Positions 2,614 through 48,800 of a stretch of 51,700 nucleotides of DNA are shown here, piece after piece; position 1 is the stretch's first letter, and each line of letters opens with the position of its first letter. The notes below the pieces were generated by a model, which was not told the origin of the DNA, did not search any database, and saw nothing but the letters and a program-made list of their open reading frames with translations. The translations under genes were made by a program, and so were the position numbers. The stretch is from a virus. Location of the stretch: positions 1 to 51,700 of the IMG/VR virus record IMGVR_UViG_3300021168_000005; one strand, 5' to 3'.

Positions 2614-2940
2614 ATGACAAAAGAAGATTATTTAAAACGTTTCAAAGAAATAACTGAAGAAATGTTTCGAATTACTAGTATAAAAAATCATGATTATTCT
2701 CCAGGGGATGAAGCTTTAGCCAACTTTAACGAGTTTGGCGCTGCTGGAGTGTTGGTTCGGATTTCAGATAAGACGAAGCGGTTAAAGACTGCTTTATGGC
2801 ATAAGCAAGATTATCTTGTTAATGAAACTGTTATTGACACTGTTACAGATTTAGCAGTCTATTCTGTAATATTAAGAATTCTTGCTGAAGAAGAAGCTAA
2901 AAAGGAAAAGCCGGCCATTATTGTAAAGGTTAGAAAATGA
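2614..2940 (+). CDS. Nucleotide modification associated domain 1 (Nmad1/DUF1599) protein
   Basis: 108 aa. The pattern KNHDYSPGDEALANF followed by VLVRISDKTKRL and ETVIDTVTDLAVYSVI matches the Nmad1/DUF1599 family, small phage proteins linked by genome context to modified nucleotides; the biochemical role is not settled. Shine-Dalgarno AAAAAGGAGCC precedes the ATG. The stop overlaps the next start (ATGA). Together with MazG at 7793 it suggests management of the nucleotide pool, but no base-modifying enzyme is obvious nearby. Confidence 0.75.
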   Translation: MTKEDYLKRFKEITEEMFRITSIKNHDYSPGDEALANFNEFGAAGVLVRISDKTKRLKTALWHKQDYLVNETVIDTVTDLAVYSVILRILAEEEAKKEKPAIIVKVRK

Positions 2941-4049
2941 TAATCCGAGATTATGGAGATGAGAAGAACCCTATCTGGGTTGTAATGAGGGAAGCCTATG
3001 CTAAGGATAGTGAGCAAGGTTATCTACTGTCTTGTGGTTACGGCCATAACTTTAAAAAAACATGGAAGCTCAGTGGAGCAAGTGATCCTTTTATCACTTC
3101 TATCAATCCTGAACTTTCTATTCCTTATGATTGGGCTTCTCAATCTCTGCTCTTTCTTACAAAGATTAATAATTATCAACCGAAAATAATAGTCGTCCTT
3201 GGGGACGAGTTATTAAATACTTTTGTTCCGTATACAAAGCAGAAGAATGCTAAAGCTTCAAGCCTCACGAAGTGGGCTGGCTCACTCCTACGGAGTGATT
3301 TGTTGACATACGATCATTATATAATTCCAAGTTACGAACCAGACTTTGTATCTTCTAATTGGGATTACCATGAAATTCAGGGATTTATAGACTTCGGTCA
3401 TGTTAAAGAGGAGGTAGATTATTTCAATGCTAATAACAAACTTAATCCTCTTCCTATGCGTAGTATCATTACGAATCCTACATATGATAACTTATGTGAT
3501 TATCTACGGTGGCTTGTTTCTGAGTGGAGTGCAAATAGGCTATCTTTTGTCTCCTCAGATATCGAAACTATCCGTCCTAAAAAAAGTACTAACTATCATA
3601 CTATTGGCCATCCCGGTTACACTTATACTATTAGCCTTGCTCCATCAATTAAAGAAGCGATAAGTTTTTGTTTTTGGGATTATCCTGCGGAGCAAGCTAT
3701 TAAGATATGGAGACTTCTAAATGCTGTTCTTAGTCAGGTGCCACAGATTGGTCAAAATTATTTTAGCTTTGATTCCCATCATCTGGAAGCACTCGGATAT
3801 AAATTACATTTATCTTTATGCCAAGATACATTATTACGGCACCATATCCTCTGGCCCGGCCTTCCTCATAAGCTACAATTCCAAACTAGACAATACACCA
3901 GAGAACCCTACTATAAAGACGAAGGGAAAAATTGGAGTTCTAAACAAAAGCATCAACTTATGAGGTATAATTGTCTCGATGCTATGGTAACATACGAGAT
4001 TTATCTCGCTCAAGAAGGAGAATTTAATGACCGACCGCATCTTCGTTAA
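2937..4049 (+). CDS. UDG-like domain fused to DnaQ-type 3'-5' exonuclease (split DNA polymerase, proofreading part)
   Basis: 370 aa. Residues 1 to about 165 have the layout of a family 4/5 uracil-DNA glycosylase (an N-terminal VVMREAY-type strand, then PKIIVVLGDELLNTF). The C-terminal part carries DEDD exonuclease motifs: DIE near 208-210 (Exo I), NYFSFD near 274-279 (Exo II) and YNCLD near 344-348 (Exo III). It is the proofreading half of a family A polymerase whose polymerase half is a separate gene at 4933-6456. Glycosylase activity is uncertain. Confidence 0.75.
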   Translation: MIIRDYGDEKNPIWVVMREAYAKDSEQGYLLSCGYGHNFKKTWKLSGASDPFITSINPELSIPYDWASQSLLFLTKINNYQPKIIVVLGDELLNTFVPYTKQKNAKASSLTKWAGSLLRSDLLTYDHYIIPSYEPDFVSSNWDYHEIQGFIDFGHVKEEVDYFNANNKLNPLPMRSIITNPTYDNLCDYLRWLVSEWSANRLSFVSSDIETIRPKKSTNYHTIGHPGYTYTISLAPSIKEAISFCFWDYPAEQAIKIWRLLNAVLSQVPQIGQNYFSFDSHHLEALGYKLHLSLCQDTLLRHHILWPGLPHKLQFQTRQYTREPYYKDEGKNWSSKQKHQLMRYNCLDAMVTYEIYLAQEGEFNDRPHLR

Positions 4050-4785: not shown

Positions 4786-4961
4786 TGTTGCGACAAATAT
4801 ATCAAATAACATTATCTTATGCTACTTATGGAATCATTGTGGATAACGGCATTGTAATACATGCTCCGCCTATAGCACAATGGATGATAGGTAAGCATAT
4901 TAATGAAATAATGGATTGGGTAAACCGTAAACATGGAACAATTGATAACATCATCTTATGA
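4785..4961 (+). CDS. Small conserved phage-type protein
   Basis: 58 aa, read from ATG at 4785 (TAATG overlap with the gene before) to TGA at 4959-4961, so it overlaps the polymerase start by 29 bases. The pattern YATYGIIVDNGIVIHAPPIA followed by WMIGK resembles a small protein common in phage replication regions (YGI-V-N-G-V---APPIA-W--G). Function unknown. The family-like pattern is my reason for calling it real. Confidence 0.65.
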   Translation: MLRQIYQITLSYATYGIIVDNGIVIHAPPIAQWMIGKHINEIMDWVNRKHGTIDNIIL

Positions 4962-6456
4962 ACACAAACTCGCAAATGCATATCATCGCATTGATAAACG
5001 AGGTTTGCTGTTTGATACTACTGCCCTTGAACAGGTCAGAGTCAAGGTTCAATCGGAACTTGATAACATCTGCGGTTGGTTTACTAATCAATGGAGTTAT
5101 CCTGTATTCATAGGGGCAAAAAAGGGTATCCCAAAAGATACGAAATTTCTGAATTTAAATAGCCCTCAGAAAGTTCTAGAAGCTTTTAAAGAGCAAGGTT
5201 ATAAAGTACCAAAGGTACGGATTAAGAATGTTGAAAGTGATGAATATGAATGGAATGAAAGTGTTAAAGAACTTGCCATGCGTAAGCTTATGGCTGATCC
5301 TACTTTGTGGCCTCATCCTCAAGGCGGAGATGCCATTAAAAAATATCTTGATTTAAAAGAATTAGTAACTTTCCGAAATAGGAATATAAATGCACGTTTT
5401 CGTAGCGTACCTTACGGTGCAATTTTTTATTCTAGTTATAATGTTGCTAGTACAGTTACTGGCAGACGCGGGTCACGAAAAAATATATTCGGTTTTGGAG
5501 GAAATGGGCAGAATTTTCCTACGAGGACTTCTTCTAGTGACGATTTTCGTAAGTGTATTATTGCTAGGCCCCGCCGTTTGTTCTTTTTTGTGGATCAAAA
5601 GCAAGCTGAAGACTGGCCAGTTCAAGCACTTGCAAAAAATTATGAAGCTTTAGAGGAGATGCGTAAAGGTGTTAATAGACATTATAAGTTCGCTAGTCTT
5701 ATTTTTGGTCGTAGTATTGATAGTCTTAGGATTGGTAGAAATAATCACGAGTTCGAAGCTGAGCTTCAATATAATCTTGGCAAACGTGGTCGCCATGCTA
5801 ATAATTATGGGATGCGTGCTGATAGGTTTTCTGAAATTTTAACTACTGAAGGTTACTCTGTACCTAAGTCAACTTGTGAGGTTATCCTTGACAAGATCAA
5901 TAAAGCCGACCCCAACGTCGATGGAGTTTTTCATTCGTATATCCAGAAACAAATCTACGATACAAGAATTTTGCGAACTCCACTTGGACGAGAACGCCAG
6001 TTCTTTGGAGTTAGACAGAATGATAAGAATTATGCAATTCTTAATGAAGCGTATTCTTACATACCACAGTCTACAATCGGTGATAATACTGGGCTTGCCA
6101 TACTCTACTTGGATGCGTGTAATGATTACGTTGTACAGGAAGGACATGACAGTATTATCCAAGAGTTACCTGATTCCTTACAAGAACTACTCAAAGTTTA
6201 TGAAGATACTACGAAAGCATTTAAAAGAATTATCACTTTCGATAACGGGATTAGCGTTGAAATCCCTATTGAGGGAAAACTCGGGTTTGACTGGTTCAAT
6301 ACAGTAGAAATTAAAAGTTGGACTCCTGAAGGCATCGCAGATGCTTATAAAGAACTCCATGAAAAGTATCATAATAGATATGAAGAAAAACAACAAAATA
6401 TAGTCATACCAAGGGAGCAAAATGCCACGACTGTTAACGAAGTCATGGCTGGATAG
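4933..6456 (+). CDS. DNA polymerase I family polymerase domain (no exonuclease)
   Basis: 507 aa. Template-directed DNA synthesis for phage replication. Motif A is DQKQAEDW near residues 221-228, where most family A enzymes have DYSQIELR: the catalytic Asp, the second Gln and the Glu are kept. Motif B is the KRGRHANNYG segment near 284-293, with NYG for NFG. Motif C is GHDS near 404-407, keeping His-Asp. There is no proofreading domain; that is encoded at 2937-4049. It overlaps the helicase gene start by 35 bases. Confidence 0.85.
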   Translation: MEQLITSSYEHKLANAYHRIDKRGLLFDTTALEQVRVKVQSELDNICGWFTNQWSYPVFIGAKKGIPKDTKFLNLNSPQKVLEAFKEQGYKVPKVRIKNVESDEYEWNESVKELAMRKLMADPTLWPHPQGGDAIKKYLDLKELVTFRNRNINARFRSVPYGAIFYSSYNVASTVTGRRGSRKNIFGFGGNGQNFPTRTSSSDDFRKCIIARPRRLFFFVDQKQAEDWPVQALAKNYEALEEMRKGVNRHYKFASLIFGRSIDSLRIGRNNHEFEAELQYNLGKRGRHANNYGMRADRFSEILTTEGYSVPKSTCEVILDKINKADPNVDGVFHSYIQKQIYDTRILRTPLGRERQFFGVRQNDKNYAILNEAYSYIPQSTIGDNTGLAILYLDACNDYVVQEGHDSIIQELPDSLQELLKVYEDTTKAFKRIITFDNGISVEIPIEGKLGFDWFNTVEIKSWTPEGIADAYKELHEKYHNRYEEKQQNIVIPREQNATTVNEVMAG

Positions 6457-36450: not shown

Positions 36451-38208
36451 TTAATAACCTTGCGAACCTACTTTACGCCGCTTAAATTGTTTAGCCTGTT
36501 GCGTAAGAAATTCTGAAATTTCTCTACTACTCATAGCGTCCATATCGAAGGTCTGAACACCGTAACCAAGAACATCAAGAATATCACGAGTAGCATGAAA
36601 AGGGTACTCCAAGTATTCGGAAATGAATTGCTCGTGTCCCGTGCGAAGACAATAAAACTCACCACGAGCAAACATAGGCTCAAGAGCATCAATACGATTA
36701 ATTTTGGCATCCTTACTATTATCTTTCTTGAACTCATTAATCTTAGTAAAGGTCCACTTTCCAGCTTTCTTATTTGTTTCGCTCGCAACTTCTAAGTGGT
36801 ACTTGAGCCATTTTTGCGCTCCAATAGTTTCAAGCCACGGTTCTTTGATTTTCCACTTTTCACCAAATTGAAATAGTTTACTAACCAAATCCGCATGAGA
36901 GGAATTGTCTGCATACAAATCCAAAAGATATACGCGAAAAGGCAATTCCAAAGTATAACCAAGAACAACAAGAGCGTGCCGTGAACGCCCTTCCGTTCCA
37001 GCGTGATTAGGGTCAAGCAAAAGAACCCGCTGTAAATGAGAAGGAAAAAGATTTTTGATAACCTGTCCATTTTTAGCTTCGTGTATTATCTGTACTCTTT
37101 TATCCCCCTTCAAGGGATCTACGGCTTGATATCGAAAATAATTTAAGTAAGACTCTTTAAATTTAGCATCAGTCGGAGGAACAGGGCTATTAAGAAATTG
37201 ACAGCTAAAAAAATAAGTGCCAAGCCGCGCTTTCCACCTATCGAGCTTCTTCCAGCTAAACTCGTGAGGAAATATAATCTTGCCACTAGGATGTTTGTCA
37301 CAACAGCCGCCAACAGCACTATGACTAGTAATTCTAAAGTACGATTCATTTTTACGAATCCAGTGATTAAGGTCTTTGTAACTCCACCTATTTCCGATTA
37401 CAACTTCGTCGTTATCTGCTTCAGGATCATTAGGATCACTATCAAAGGCTCCAACGAGTAACTTATGGTAGTCGATTGTACCATTCATTACTATTTCAGA
37501 TTCTAATGCTTCTTTTCCTACTAAATCATCTTCGATGGCTCGTTTATAATGCCGTGACTGTAATGCAGTTCCAACTGATAAGTAATCGTAAGTTCCTTCT
37601 CCATCAGCGGTTCTTCCACTACGCTTATGCGTCTTAGTTGTAACACTCCAATTACATGAGGTATCCGGTTTAATCTCGGAATAGAGTCTAGTGAAGAAAT
37701 CATTATTTTGATATTGGTTATCAACTCGTACTCCGAGTTTACCAATATTTTCTTTATTTTCGGACACAAGCAACGTCCTTGTATCTTGGTCATGCGCTCT
37801 ACGCATCCATTTAATCCACTCATCTCCATATCCCAAGGCGCGCATGAACTTCTCGTCCTCATCATTAAACGGCAAAGCCCACCATATAGGAGCGGATTCA
37901 CTACCGATCGTAGACTTGAAGTGGTCACGCGGTATCTCTATTATATCCTTTAATCTTTCAGATTCGAACAACTCACAGATGTCTTTATGCAAATACTCTC
38001 GTAAGCGATGCTTACGCAGTATAATTTTAGAGAAATAATAAAGAGAACCGAAACCATTAAGTCTATGTATAACATCTGCAACCTTTGGTGCTAACCCCGT
38101 AGGGTCTATAATAGTCCAATGATTAGCCCAACTCTTCGAGTTTTCTTGCTGTAACTGATCTACTAATCCATCAAGTTCTGTCGTTATATCTGTGGTCGAA
38201 GTAGGCAT
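36451..38208 (-). CDS. terL: Terminase large subunit
   Basis: 585 aa. The ATPase part has a deviant Walker A (PRDHFKST, near residues 93-100) and Walker B IEDDL near 224-228. The nuclease part has LLLDPNHA near 396-403 (first catalytic Asp) and a late DILDVLGYG. It pumps DNA into the prohead through the portal. No Shine-Dalgarno site lies directly before its ATG; upstream is the interleaved repeat 38222-38417. Headful packaging would fit a circularly permuted genome. Confidence 0.85.
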   Translation of the reverse strand: MPTSTTDITTELDGLVDQLQQENSKSWANHWTIIDPTGLAPKVADVIHRLNGFGSLYYFSKIILRKHRLREYLHKDICELFESERLKDIIEIPRDHFKSTIGSESAPIWWALPFNDEDEKFMRALGYGDEWIKWMRRAHDQDTRTLLVSENKENIGKLGVRVDNQYQNNDFFTRLYSEIKPDTSCNWSVTTKTHKRSGRTADGEGTYDYLSVGTALQSRHYKRAIEDDLVGKEALESEIVMNGTIDYHKLLVGAFDSDPNDPEADNDEVVIGNRWSYKDLNHWIRKNESYFRITSHSAVGGCCDKHPSGKIIFPHEFSWKKLDRWKARLGTYFFSCQFLNSPVPPTDAKFKESYLNYFRYQAVDPLKGDKRVQIIHEAKNGQVIKNLFPSHLQRVLLLDPNHAGTEGRSRHALVVLGYTLELPFRVYLLDLYADNSSHADLVSKLFQFGEKWKIKEPWLETIGAQKWLKYHLEVASETNKKAGKWTFTKINEFKKDNSKDAKINRIDALEPMFARGEFYCLRTGHEQFISEYLEYPFHATRDILDVLGYGVQTFDMDAMSSREISEFLTQQAKQFKRRKVGSQGY

Positions 38209-38221
38209 TTTTTACATAGCG

Positions 38222-38417
38222 CTTAGGTCCTAATTTTCGCGCCCCTAAGATTGTGGGAGGGTTTTCACTTTTGATCTCTCATCCGGGCATCTATCGAGCA
38301 TAATTTAAGGGGATTGTTATTATGCCCGTTGTGTTGATCGTAAGATGTCAGTCAAAACCCTCCCAAGGAAAAGACGACAGAGCTTACACTTAACACTCTT
38401 ACAAAATAACAATCCCC
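38222..38417 (-). ncRNA. Pseudoknot-forming intergenic element between terS and terL
   Basis: Perfect pairs by eye: 38222-38227 with 38244-38249 (6 bp); 38255-38265 with 38354-38364 (11 bp); 38284-38290 with 38322-38328 (7 bp); and 38309-38321 with 38405-38417 (13 bp). The last two long helices interleave: an arm in the loop of the 11-bp helix pairs outside it. There is no coding sequence here. Could be an RNA controlling TerL translation, or a DNA site such as pac. Confidence 0.65.
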
Positions 38418-38420
38418 AAC

Positions 38421-38972
38421 TTATTGAGTCTGCTCACTCGCTGAAGGCGAATCAATTGTTATAGGAATAGACTCAGAGATAATCTTTTCATTATTACGTT
38501 TAGTTGTTTCTAAAGCCTTTATTAGTTCGCTCGCAAGTTCATTATCTTGGCTATTATCCACATTTTGCGATGCCGTAGGTAAGCCGATTCTACTAACCTT
38601 AGCGAAAGCTCCTTGTCGATCGAGTACTTCTTTCGAGGCTTCAAACTGAAGCTTCTTATCTATTTTCTGGACACAAGCTGCATAAAGATTTTCCAACGCG
38701 ACAGGGACTGCCTGATTTAAAATCCGTCTTTGTAGAGGGAGATTCTCTATGATATTCTCGTCTGCTACGCTGAGAACACCAGTCAAGTATTGATTATGTA
38801 ATTGCTGATAAATTTGGGTTTTCTTAAGGAGGGAATACGAAGTCTGCGACATCCCAATATGTTGGGCTATCTCGCGATCTTTAAGGCCGAGATTTAACAT
38901 CTCTAAGCGGCAGGCGATTCTAATCTTATCGACTGTTTTAGAATGATGTTTCCCTTTACGGGAGAAGCTCAT
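38421..38972 (-). CDS. terS: Terminase small subunit
   Basis: 183 aa. A helix-turn-helix (LKDREIAQHIGMSQTSYSLLKK) near residues 34-55, a helical middle for ring assembly and a disordered Ser/Pro/Glu tail, as in small terminase subunits that recognise the packaging site. Directly upstream of TerL in transcription order. Start overlaps the preceding stop (TAATG). Confidence 0.75.
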   Translation of the reverse strand: MSFSRKGKHHSKTVDKIRIACRLEMLNLGLKDREIAQHIGMSQTSYSLLKKTQIYQQLHNQYLTGVLSVADENIIENLPLQRRILNQAVPVALENLYAACVQKIDKKLQFEASKEVLDRQGAFAKVSRIGLPTASQNVDNSQDNELASELIKALETTKRNNEKIISESIPITIDSPSASEQTQ

Positions 38973-39290: not shown

Positions 39291-39536
39291 AATCTATCAA
39301 ACCTCAACTTCACACTTTAACGCAATCGAACCAGCCTTACTTTGTCTACTAGTATGGCAGGCTTCGTTGGTGAAGTCAATGAATATTATGGCCGCAGGCT
39401 GTACCATTTAAAGGAAGTTACCTTGGTAACTATCTACTCGTCTATCGTTAGATGGTAGACTTGGCCTTTCGGCGTTAACTCTTTAGCTTTGCTAATCTAG
39501 ACTCTCTTCACTATCGTTATTATCAATCACGAAGTG

Positions 39537-39565
39537 ATTATAAATGTCATCGTAGATAAAGACAA
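39537..39565 (-). promoter_or_regulatory. Late promoter candidate (sigma70-like)
   Basis: Minus strand: -35 TTGTCT at 39565-39560, a 17-base spacer, and a perfect -10 TATAAT at 39542-39537. It reads into the late operon and is the best promoter in the control region for that direction. Confidence 0.6.
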
Positions 39566-39600
39566 ATATATTATGTACGAAATGAAAAAACTAGAAAAAA

Positions 39601-39629
39601 TTCTGAGAACATCCCCGGTCGTGTAAAAT
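39601..39629 (+). promoter_or_regulatory. Rightward promoter candidate
   Basis: -35-like TTCTGA at 39601-39606, a 17-base spacer, and -10 TAAAAT at 39624-39629 (5 of 6 match). It would start RNA just before the structured 39652-40106 stretch. The -35 is poor. Confidence 0.35.
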
Positions 39630-39651
39630 TTTCTCTGCTATATTACCCCCG

Positions 39652-39755
39652 GCCTTTAGATTCTTACACTTAGAGTGCCTTCGGCAAGTAATAAATATAC
39701 ACTGGCGTGTAATAATTATATATTACTATGAGCTTATGTGTATGATTCTAAAGGC
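39652..39755 (+). ncRNA. Y-shaped RNA fold candidate
   Basis: 39652-39669 pairs with 39738-39755 (16 of 18 bp). Inside are TGCC/GGCA (39676-39679 with 39683-39686), TAATA/TATTA (39689-39693 with 39721-39725) and TACAC/GTGTA (39698-39702 with 39707-39711), making a three-way junction. Two further hairpins follow at 39767-39782 and 39794-39812. Confidence 0.5.
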
Positions 39756-39859
39756 TTTAACTTTAGTATAGCACTTGCTATAGTAAGGGTGCGAGCTAGT
39801 TATGAGCTAGCTGTACAAGTAATAGTGTTTACTAATGAGTAAGCCTTACATTTTGTGGC

Positions 39860-39888
39860 TTGCATCATAGCGGACACTTGTATATAAC
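39860..39888 (+). promoter_or_regulatory. Second rightward promoter candidate
   Basis: TTGCAT at 39860-39865, a 17-base spacer and TATAAC at 39883-39888. It overlaps predicted helices, so promoter and structure roles may exclude each other. Confidence 0.3.
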
Positions 39889-40013
39889 CATACTGTCTGC
39901 TGTATATGGGACGGTGTAGCATATAGATCAGCGCTCTATGGTAGGCTATTACCTGCTAAGGTAGCCGTTTATATGTGCACTAAGACCTACGTCATTAGGA
40001 TTATGACTCTGTG

Positions 40014-40106
40014 CTAGTGTAGTGTTATGACCGTTAATCTGGGGCTACATGCAGGTAGCGTTAGACGTAACACTACTGGGGATTAACGGTCTTATCACTA
40101 CACTAG
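40014..40106. repeat. Long inverted repeat with two internal hairpins
   Basis: CTAGTGTAGTG (40014-40024) pairs with 40096-40106, then a symmetric TTAT/TTAT bulge, then GACCGTTAATC (40029-40039) pairs with 40081-40091: a 26-position stem with two 11-bp perfect parts. The loop holds CTAC-ATGCAG-GTAG and GTTA-GACG-TAAC hairpins between two TGGGG sequences. Cruciform or RNA four-way shape. Confidence 0.75.
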
Positions 40107-40122
40107 AGATTATCTTCCGCAT

Positions 40123-40532
40123 ATCATGCTCTAGCCAATTCTACAGATGAGAGGCTAAGATCATGGCAACGTTGGAAGGCAAAACACCCGAACAAATTGC
40201 AGCGGAGATTGTTAAAAAAGCAGTTGAGCCGCTGAAAATCGAAATCGACGGAGTTCGCGGTCAAGATTTGGATAGTCTGCTTAAGTATAAGCATGCTAAA
40301 CAAATCTACTCCAAAGGCGAGAAGTGGTTTACTGAGAATCTTGATATGCTCAGGAAAGAGTTTCTTGAGAATATCATCGAATCTCAGTACGACCAACGGA
40401 AGAAACAGGATAAAGCACAGTCAGAAAAAGAGAAACTTGAATACTACACTCTGCTTATTAGTCGTGGAGTGGAGAAAATCAAGGCTCTTGAAATGGCAGG
40501 GATGTAGTTTGCGTTCGAAACTAGAGCATGAT
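40123..40532. repeat. 12-bp inverted repeat flanking the first early gene
   Basis: ATCATGCTCTAG at 40123-40134 and CTAGAGCATGAT at 40521-40532 are perfect complements on either side of the 40163-40507 gene. In the mRNA this would tie the 5' leader to the region just before the next ribosome binding site. Confidence 0.6.
40163..40507 (+). CDS. Hypothetical early protein
   Basis: 114 aa, helical and charged (KKAVEPLKIEIDGVRGQDLDSL). First gene of the rightward operon. No family recognised. GAGAGGCTAAGATC precedes the ATG. Its stop lies in the hairpin TAGTTT/AAACTA (40505-40523). Confidence 0.65.
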   Translation: MATLEGKTPEQIAAEIVKKAVEPLKIEIDGVRGQDLDSLLKYKHAKQIYSKGEKWFTENLDMLRKEFLENIIESQYDQRKKQDKAQSEKEKLEYYTLLISRGVEKIKALEMAGM

Positions 40533-42360: not shown

Positions 42361-42546
42361 CGGGCGTTAGCCCGTCTGGAGGGTATAAAGATTATCACTA
42401 GCGTGATTATAATAATCACTTTAGTGAGCTACGCTAACAATAAGGGACTGACGAAAAATATATGGCTGCAAACGTATATAATAAATCAGTCGCTCTTGCA
42501 GGAGAAACCAGCATACGTTGGGTTAGCGTAGCTCAGTGAGGTGATT
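42361..42546 (+). ncRNA. Riboswitch-like leader with a 25-bp stem, pseudoknot and masked ribosome binding site
   Basis: 42414-42438 pairs with 42522-42546: 24 of 25 positions, two G-U and one mismatch. The 3' arm holds GAGGTG, the Shine-Dalgarno site of the next gene. In the loop, GACTGA 42446-42451 pairs with 42486-42491, and ATATA/TATAT (42458-42462 with 42475-42479) forms a hairpin whose loop CTGCAA (42466-42471) pairs with TTGCAG (42496-42501). Upstream are CGGGC-GTTA-GCCCG (42361-42374) and GTGATTAT (42403-42410), which can take ATAATCAC (42412-42419) away from the stem: an on/off switch. Confidence 0.6.
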
Positions 42547-46932: not shown

Positions 46933-47661
46933 GTGACTGAAGAAAACAAACTCGAAAAACCATCAAACATCGTTGAGATGTTTAAACCTAAGAAGTGGGG
47001 CATAGCTGCGGCAAAAGAACAAGCGAAGAAAGCAATTGCAGATTTAGACCCATCTACGATGGAACATCGTCTTGGAATCGTTTTCGATGATAGTGGTAGT
47101 ATGGGTTCTAAAGTAGATGATAAAACAAAAATAGATCATGCTCATGCAGGAATAAGAAACTTCACTGCACAATGTAATCCCAAGGATACTTCGTTAGCGA
47201 TTTATCCGCTTAATAAAACACCGCAGGCATTAACCTGCAATTACGACGTTCTCAATCTTTATGTAGGCACCATCAGAGAAAGTGGTGGAACTCCGTTATA
47301 TACAATCACAACTAAAATGCTCAACGAAGCTGATCTTACTCGTGGAGTATTATTTTCTGACGGGTCACCAACAGACGGTCATGCTGGTTATGGAGAAGAA
47401 TACGATAAAGACTTGAAAGAGGATATGATTAATTTGGCAATAGCCAAGAAAGTTCCTCTTGATACAATCTTTATTGGTTACGACGGCGAAAGTGGTTATG
47501 ATCTTCTGAAAGAAATAGCCGATCGCACAGGCGGTATCTTTGTTCATTTTAAAGATGCCAAGGCGCTAGGAGCTTCGCTTAAATACTTAGCACCCGCCTT
47601 GCGTGGAATCTTGATGAATGCAGAACTCAAAGAGAAAATACAACGTGGGGAAACAATATGA
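46933..47661 (+). CDS. von Willebrand factor A (VWA) domain protein
   Basis: 242 aa, GTG start with AAGGAG upstream. MIDAS motif: DDSGS near residues 52-56, the Thr in GGTPLY and the Asp in FSDGSPTDG. Such domains bind metal and a protein ligand. Its stop overlaps the start of the FtsK/HerA-type ATPase gene (ATGA), so the two are coupled; VWA-ATPase pairs act together in cellular systems such as MoxR-VWA. Confidence 0.75.
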   Translation: MTEENKLEKPSNIVEMFKPKKWGIAAAKEQAKKAIADLDPSTMEHRLGIVFDDSGSMGSKVDDKTKIDHAHAGIRNFTAQCNPKDTSLAIYPLNKTPQALTCNYDVLNLYVGTIRESGGTPLYTITTKMLNEADLTRGVLFSDGSPTDGHAGYGEEYDKDLKEDMINLAIAKKVPLDTIFIGYDGESGYDLLKEIADRTGGIFVHFKDAKALGASLKYLAPALRGILMNAELKEKIQRGETI

Positions 47662-48800
47662 ATCAGGTTAATAATATGAATCTAGAACAAACCAACAATA
47701 TAATTGCCCTTGGGCAGAAACTTGTTGGTTTAGGCATCGAAGCAAAATTCAGCCACGTTGAAGAAGGTCCGGTTGTCACAGTCTATTATTTTAAACTTGA
47801 CAGCGGCGAATCTGTTGCTAGAGTTATAAAACGAGCAGAAGATTTTGCTTTAGCAATGGAACAAGATAAAGTGATGGTTCAACGTGTCGGCGGTTTAATT
47901 GCCGTATTCGTTCCCAATGCAGAAAAAAAGATTGTAGACTTTAAGGATTATCTATACTGGTATCTCAATGATCCGAAAGTTAAAGCGCAAGCTCTTCCAA
48001 TTCCTTTGGGAGTTGATTATCGTGGTAATAAGAGTACTTTCGATTTAGTAGATATGCCACACTGTTTAATTACAGGTTCTACTAATAGCGGAAAATCCGT
48101 ACTCGAAGCGGCGATTCTTTCAGCGCTAAGCTTACATCGCGCGTCTAACGAGCTTAATTTCTATCTCTGCGATACTAAAATGGTCGATCTTCCACTTTTT
48201 AAAGATTTCCCACATGTAAAAGTAGTCGCAGATAACGTCCAAGCTTTTCATAATATGATGACTTGGATTATGCAAGAAACGCGGCGAAGACTCGCCGTCT
48301 TGCAAGGAGCTAGCTGTAGGAAAATCCAAGACTATCATAATATGTATAGCGGAGATATATCTATGATGCCGTATATCATAGTAATGATAGATGAGTTTGG
48401 AGACTTGATGGATCTTGACTCTGCAATTCGTAAAGGAGGCGATACCCTTGACGAAGTTCCTACCGTTAAACAATGGATTAAAAGTGCATCCCAAATATGC
48501 CGTGCAGCAGGCGTACATCTTATCTGTTGTACCCAACGCGCAAGCGTTAAAGTTGTTGATGGTGACATCAAAGCTAACCTACCTTGCAGGATTTCCCTTC
48601 GGTTGCCAACCCAAACGGATTCTCGTACTATTCTCGGTATTGGGGGAGCGGAGAATTTATTGGGCAATGGTGACATGCTTATCGCAAGGCCGGGAAAAGA
48701 TGCTCTTGAACGTTTTCACGGTCCATTTGTGTCGATGAATGATATAGCAGCGCTAATTTCTCAATATGATATGATGAAAACTATGTTCGCACCTAAATAA
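47658..48800 (+). CDS. FtsK/HerA-type DNA-translocase ATPase
   Basis: 380 aa. N-terminal region (PVVTVYYFKLDSGESVARVIKRAEDFALAM) matches the alpha/beta start of FtsK motors. Walker A GSTNSGKS is near 140-147, Walker B IIVMIDE near 240-246, then CTQRAS and GRPGKD-like late motifs. No transmembrane part and no C-terminal gamma (KOPS-reading) domain. It could move DNA or a protein-DNA complex, perhaps regulated by the VWA partner. Confidence 0.8.
   Translation: MNQVNNMNLEQTNNIIALGQKLVGLGIEAKFSHVEEGPVVTVYYFKLDSGESVARVIKRAEDFALAMEQDKVMVQRVGGLIAVFVPNAEKKIVDFKDYLYWYLNDPKVKAQALPIPLGVDYRGNKSTFDLVDMPHCLITGSTNSGKSVLEAAILSALSLHRASNELNFYLCDTKMVDLPLFKDFPHVKVVADNVQAFHNMMTWIMQETRRRLAVLQGASCRKIQDYHNMYSGDISMMPYIIVMIDEFGDLMDLDSAIRKGGDTLDEVPTVKQWIKSASQICRAAGVHLICCTQRASVKVVDGDIKANLPCRISLRLPTQTDSRTILGIGGAENLLGNGDMLIARPGKDALERFHGPFVSMNDIAALISQYDMMKTMFAPK

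What the first reader, a model, noticed from the sequence alone, without database searches (positions are those of the whole stretch)
38222..38417. Pseudoknot with 11-bp and 13-bp interleaved helices between terS and terL
38255-38265/38354-38364 and 38309-38321/38405-38417 interleave, and both are perfect. Combined with a TerL start that lacks a Shine-Dalgarno site, it suggests structure-controlled TerL synthesis, or a packaging (pac) site recognised by TerS, whose gene is adjacent.
Basis: partly seen in the sequence, partly recalled or inferred. Interest (0 to 1): 0.7.

Follow-up and report, generated by a model that had tools for sequence, protein, structure and literature searches.

The report
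New pseudoknotted RNA family in phage terminase operons
The interleaved helices between two DNA-packaging genes of this phage belong to a real, previously unlisted folded RNA, found in about 30 related phages that keep the fold while changing nearly every paired base; what it does is not yet known.

Summary
Two perfect interleaved helices (13 bp and 12 bp) lie in the 212-nt terS-terL gap on the terminase-sense (minus) strand. No shuffle of the gap comes close (0/200).

About thirty phages of this TerL clade carry the same topology with different helix sequences. Covariation is very strong: H2 has 10/10 pairs with double changes in 21 sequences; H1+P2 has 15/20 in 7; both 0/500 shuffles. There is no Rfam match for the window or 20 relatives, and I found no paper on it. 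I conclude that this is a new structured-RNA family.

TerL is often not the next gene, and in two phages the RNA precedes terS. Covarying pairs point to RNA rather than a double-stranded pac site. The RNA lies sense, near the start of the late operon, and is patchily absent even from close TerL relatives. My best guess is a cis-acting nascent-RNA element of the late operon (put-like, not shown). A trans-acting packaging RNA and mRNA-level control remain open.

The parts
38222..38420 (-). the structured RNA region: terS-terL gap from after the terS stop to the 3' hairpin
   Evidence: conserved topology in ~30 relatives
38405..38417 (-). H1 5' arm GGGGATTGTTATT
   Evidence: covariation of H1 in 7 relatives
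38309..38321 (-). H1 3' arm AATAACAATCCCC
38354..38365 (-). H2 5' arm TGGGAGGGTTTT, in the apical loop of P2
   Evidence: H2 covariation, 10/10 pairs doubly changed in 21 sequences
38254..38265 (-). H2 3' arm AAAACCCTCCCA
38322..38328 (-). Px 5' arm CGGGCAT, directly before the H1 3' arm
   Evidence: equivalent helix in nearly all members
38284..38290 (-). Px 3' arm ATGCCCG
38392..38396 (-). P2a 5' arm GTGTT (partner AACAC 38331-38335)
   Evidence: 5 of 6 pairs of this helix doubly changed
38383..38387 (-). P2b 5' arm GTAAG (partner CTTAC 38340-38344); an AAGT/GATC internal loop separates P2a from P2b
38366..38372 (-). pyrimidine tract TTTTCCT before H2, present in nearly every member
38222..38249 (-). 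3' hairpin CTTAGG...CCTAAG, equivalent in place to the G+C-rich hairpin after H2 in relatives
38212..38217 (-). AUG-UAA start-stop just before the TerL AUG; the corresponding AUG opens the HNH ORF in L001; AGGA at 38228-38231
36451..38208 (-). TerL, 585 aa
   Evidence: phrog_38 E=1.6e-41
38421..38972 (-). TerS, 183 aa
   Evidence: phrog_2538 E=2.2e-6

Best explanation
SHOWN: the gap encodes a conserved structured RNA of about 165-200 nt, read from the strand of the late genes. H1 encloses a P2 hairpin whose apical loop pairs downstream as H2, and Px pairs from just before the H1 3' arm to a place before the H2 3' arm, giving two interleavings with H1. INFERRED: it acts in cis, as part of the late transcript, near the 5' end of a long late operon (about 30 kb in the window). 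Most likely it acts on the transcription machinery or on the fate of that transcript, in the manner of a put-type antitermination RNA, rather than as a switch dedicated to TerL. That it is transcribed, and what it touches, is not shown.
For: RNA-level selection: H2 10/10 pairs doubly changed, 61 such cells, 0/500 shuffles, and collapse when slid by 1-3 columns. H1+P2 15/20 pairs, 30 cells, 0/500 (on a structure-blind MAFFT alignment). In 19 of 21 regions none of 200 shuffles reaches the joint score of the real one. Strand: every member is sense to the late genes; G-U beats A-C 24:11. Cis placement: all lie in the terminase slot, about 0.5-1.9 kb from the start of the late operon where this could be read, mostly with divergent genes upstream. 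The gene that follows varies (TerL, HNH, small ORFs, TerS), so it is not a leader for one gene. No single-subunit RNA polymerase was found in 19 records, so host polymerase presumably makes the late transcript. No convincing copy elsewhere in the sister contigs read.
Against: No transcript data. L160 and L180 have a strong terminator-like hairpin upstream of the RNA, so there it could not act on that terminator and may start a separate transcript. Terminator-like sites on the late strand of the window are few. A trans-acting RNA made from the late operon would sit in the same place. put RNA is ~70 nt with two stem-loops (PMC9378689), much simpler than this fold. The PF00940 search rang in no control genome, so that absence is weak.
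Confidence: 0.42

Rival explanations
1. A trans-acting phage RNA that works with the terminase or portal (a packaging RNA, working like but unrelated to phi29 pRNA).
For: Always in the terminase neighbourhood while its exact place moves (before terS, after terS, other ORFs between), as expected of a gene rather than a leader. Intricate fold with conserved unpaired motifs (GCUCUG, pyrimidine tract, A-rich linker).
Against: Patchy: close TerL relatives lack it beside terL (L139/L140 at 77% TerL identity to the window, L254, L150), so the motor probably works without it. No copy seen elsewhere in L005's 19.5-kb contig. No Rfam match, and Rfam holds the phi29 pRNA family.
Confidence: 0.22
2. A cis-acting mRNA element that sets translation or stability of terS versus the genes after it.
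For: Sits between the terS stop and the next start codon in most members. The TerL AUG in the window lacks a Shine-Dalgarno site, and AUG-UAA precedes it. Pseudoknots can block ribosomes or nucleases (general knowledge).
Against: The next gene varies and can have its own unpaired AGGAG (L142, L155). In L161 and L164 the RNA is before terS. In L160 a terminator-like hairpin separates terS from it.
Confidence: 0.2
3. A double-stranded DNA packaging-start site (pac/cos) bound by TerS or cut by TerL/HNH, the inverted repeats being protein sites.
For: pac and cos sites are commonly in or beside terS (general knowledge). HNH genes, found in packaging machines of other phages, adjoin the element in L001 and L169.
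Against: Several helices with unrelated sequences, each covarying, in a fixed interleaved order; G-U favoured over A-C; the site would have to be dispensable in close relatives.
Confidence: 0.08
4. A mobile or selfish RNA (ribozyme-like) that occupies the same insertion hot spot as HNH genes.
For: Patchy on the TerL tree: 14 changes, 11 forced by well-supported branches, an upper bound because some absences are false (L243 proved positive on inspection). HNH or EndoVII-like ORFs in the same slot (L001, L150, L169).
Against: Not found outside this locus by a motif scan of 2.9 million viral contigs. No clean insertion borders between L177 and L254. No group I intron match.
Confidence: 0.08

Closest known systems
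HK022 put RNA (processive antitermination element)
   Same: Phage cis-acting RNA near the start of a long operon, acts with host RNA polymerase; its first stem forms an RNA triplex, and the pyrimidine tract beside H2 here could allow one (PMC9378689; the comparison is mine).
   Different: put is ~70 nt, two stem-loops, in early operons; this is ~165-200 nt, pseudoknotted, in late operons. Activity untested.
phi29 packaging RNA (pRNA)
   Same: Structured RNA linked to DNA packaging.
   Different: No Rfam match, different architecture, terminase is T7-like TerS/TerL, and close relatives lack the RNA beside terL.
EAR / eps-associated RNA of Bacillus
   Same: Intra-operon structured RNA that acts on elongation (from memory).
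   Different: No Rfam match; different organism group and fold.
Group I introns (P3 x P7 pseudoknot)
   Same: H1 x Px interleave like P3 x P7, with HNH genes nearby in some.
   Different: No conserved intron core, no Rfam match, intergenic, and H2 has no counterpart.
pac/cos packaging sites
   Same: Location by terS.
   Different: Selection is on base pairing within one strand.

Membership tests
Any Rfam 15 family (including phage pRNA, EAR/epsC, group I intron) | Score at or above the family's gathering threshold | tested here: not met
   No match for the window or 20 relatives; best loose match of the gap E=0.53, a snoRNA, chance
put-type antitermination RNA | RNA near the start of an operon, sense strand | tested here: met
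   (0.5-1.9 kb from the start of the late operon), all sense
put-type antitermination RNA | ~70 nt, two stem-loops | tested here: not met
   This element is ~165-200 nt with interleaved helices (put size from PMC9378689)
put-type antitermination RNA | Makes RNA polymerase read through terminators | not testable with these tools
   Needs a reporter or in vitro transcription
phi29 pRNA | Covariance-model match | tested here: not met
phi29 pRNA | Required for packaging throughout the lineage | tested here: inconclusive
   Absent beside terL in close TerL relatives, but contigs are partial; no essentiality test possible
pac/cos site | Genome ends or first cuts map to it | not testable with these tools
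   No reads available
Structured RNA family (new) | Compensatory changes in the proposed helices beyond chance | tested here: met
   0/500 shuffles each
Structured RNA family (new) | Same topology in independent relatives | tested here: met

The most novel reading that the evidence does not exclude
A new class of phage RNA that is a working part of, or a dedicated RNA-only controller for, the genome-packaging/late-gene module of a large uncultured phage clade with T7-like terminases, where no packaging RNA or RNA antiterminator is known to me.
Probability: 0.3. Interest if true: 0.85.

Novelty: categorically new. Interest (0 to 1): 0.66.

Why it matters
As an RNA family it matches none of 4227 known families and has an unusual three-helix interleaved fold with very strong covariation in divergent phages. 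It gives a concrete, small, testable element. If it controls late transcription it would be a rare protein-free phage control RNA; if it acts in packaging it would be the first RNA I know of tied to a TerS/TerL motor. Even without a function, the alignment and topology let others find and fold it. 'Categorically new' refers to the RNA family, not to a proven mechanism.

Tried and rejected
Pattern scan AAGTGTARGCTCTGT: nearly all chance hits. TerS alignment scan gave no new relatives beyond those known, and the genome-contig scan found none. That scan gives background at scores below about 40, and the complement of a true RNA also scores, so minus-strand 'controls' are inflated. RNA absence by scan is not safe: L243 was called absent on the tree but has a weaker copy, so the 14 changes are an upper bound. 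L275, L288 and L301 looked like chance and were left out. One search used a structure offset by two columns; one search is the right one. The pieces in H2 alignment A7 were cut at helices already identified, so 'percent paired' there is partly by construction; the double changes at each position and (structure-blind alignment) are the fairer evidence. G-U versus A-C is only modest evidence. Host not identified. Group I intron, HDV-like ribozyme and tmRNA readings were rejected on topology, Rfam and ARAGORN.

Full report
OBSERVATION. The two helices are in the sequence as stated: H1 38405-38417/38309-38321 (13 bp) and H2 38254-38265/38354-38365 (12 bp). They lie in the 212-nt gap between terS (38421-38972, minus) and terL (36451-38208, minus); PHROGs supports both names. 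On the terminase-sense strand the order is H1 5', P2 5', H2 5', P2 3', Px 5', H1 3', Px 3', H2 3', hairpin. Px (CGGGCAT/ATGCCCG) adds a second interleaving with H1. The joint score is reached by 0 of 200 dinucleotide shuffles of the gap (48.5 against a maximum of 32.5). In a scan of the window it is the best place; shuffled windows reach 34.5-37.

RELATIVES. TerL finds 11 viral contigs at 44-100% identity, then 80 and 80 more, partly the same, with alignments. In L002, L003, L004, L006 and L011 the gap holds the same layout with different helix sequences (L002, 99% TerL identity, differs little). Many more distant relatives (L142, L147, L148, L151, L154-L156, L159-L161, L163, L164, L169, L172, L177, L180, L181, L183, L242, L249, L259, L292, L293, L297) have it too. 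I count about 30 members, 28 with distinct H1 arms tabulated. H2 or Px is not clear in every one (H2 unclear in L147, L151, L172). In 19 of 21 regions tested none of 200 shuffles reached the joint score; L004 had 1/200 and L172 2/200.

COVARIATION. On a MAFFT alignment that knew nothing of structure (A4, 7 sequences), H1, P2a and P2b have 92% standard pairs, 15 of 20 pairs with changes on both sides and 30 such cells (shuffle mean 10.3, 0/500); sliding partners by 1-3 columns destroys it. For H2, 21 sequences give 10 of 10 pairs with double changes, 61 cells (mean 15.8, 0/500), 91% paired; those pieces were cut at helices found beforehand, so the percentage is partly by construction. Interior non-Watson-Crick oppositions are G-U 24, A-C 11 (p=0.04), in favour of RNA of the sense strand over double-stranded DNA.

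CONSERVED SINGLE-STRANDED PARTS. A pyrimidine tract (such as UUUCCUU) directly precedes the H2 5' arm, often GGCAGG or GACAGG, in nearly all members. A linker, A-rich in many, precedes the H2 3' arm and a G+C-rich hairpin often follows it. Many members have GCUCUG at the exit of P2b and CAU or CAA at its return; the subfamily of the window has AAGU opposite GAYC within P2. The tract beside a purine-rich helix would permit a triplex; this is inference.

WHERE IT SITS. Every member is on the strand of the late genes. In most it follows the terS stop, and then comes TerL, or an HNH ORF (L001, L169), or small ORFs (L006, L142, L151, L155, L163); in L161 and L164 it precedes terS. It is about 0.5-1.9 kb from the start of the late operon, mostly with divergent genes beyond. 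L160 and L180 have a strong terminator-like hairpin just upstream of it. It is absent beside TerL in several close relatives (L139, L140, L150, L254), and the TerL tree needs up to 14 changes, an upper bound since L243, scored absent, has a weaker copy. No convincing second copy lies elsewhere in the contigs read. A motif scan of all viral contigs found only a known member.

MECHANISM. The variable next gene and the position before terS speak against a leader for TerL. Compensatory changes speak against a TerS site in double-stranded DNA. Patchiness speaks against an obligate motor part. The constant features are strand, early position in the late operon, and independence of the following gene. 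Of the models considered, a cis-acting nascent-RNA element of the late transcript explains these best; put RNA of HK022 is the nearest thing that works so (PMC9378689: ~70 nt, two stem-loops, read-through over at least 10 kb). That step is inference, and L160 and L180 do not fit simply. A trans-acting RNA and mRNA-level control stay open.

MEMBERSHIP AND NOVELTY. No Rfam family matches the window, the gap at loose thresholds (one chance hit) or 20 relatives; literature searches found no such RNA. It is not filed under put, pRNA, EAR or group I introns. It is a new RNA family; the function is a hypothesis.

THE MISSING SD. The TerL AUG has none; an AUG-UAA start-stop at 38217-38212 with AGGA 10 nt upstream lies just before it. 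In L001 the corresponding AUG opens the HNH ORF, so this may be an emptied gene slot rather than a regulatory signal.

Noticed in passing
window 2937-4049 and 4933-6456 (+): Family-A DNA polymerase is encoded in two ORFs about 880 nt apart with small ORFs between; the two halves are also separate in six sister contigs. A stably split polymerase gene.
   Followed up: partly
window 42424-42534 (+): A 14-bp perfect inverted repeat (TGAGCTACGCTAAC/GTTAGCGTAGCTCA) enclosing interleaved short helices, a second pseudoknot-like element overlapping small ORFs; no nucleotide match in the sister contigs read.
   Followed up: partly
window 39300-40160: Long non-coding region between divergent operons with nested inverted repeats at 39950-40110; about 219 bp (39580-39793) are 73% conserved in L218. 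Candidate origin or promoter region.
   Followed up: partly
L001 about 166-417, L169 3576-3911, L150 3648-3968: HNH or EndoVII-like ORFs occupy the slot just before terL, with the RNA (L001, L169) or without it (L150).
   Followed up: partly
window 38212-38217 (-): AUG-UAA start-stop immediately before the TerL AUG, also in L002 and L004, possibly a remnant of an emptied gene slot.
   Followed up: partly
L160 2683-2741, L180 about 263-281: Strong intrinsic-terminator-like hairpins just upstream of the RNA, in L160 between terS and the RNA, so RNA and terL may be a separate transcript there.
   Followed up: partly
window 47658-48800 (+): FtsK/SpoIIIE-like ATPase gene in the early region, which looks unusual beside a T7-like terminase.
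   Followed up: no
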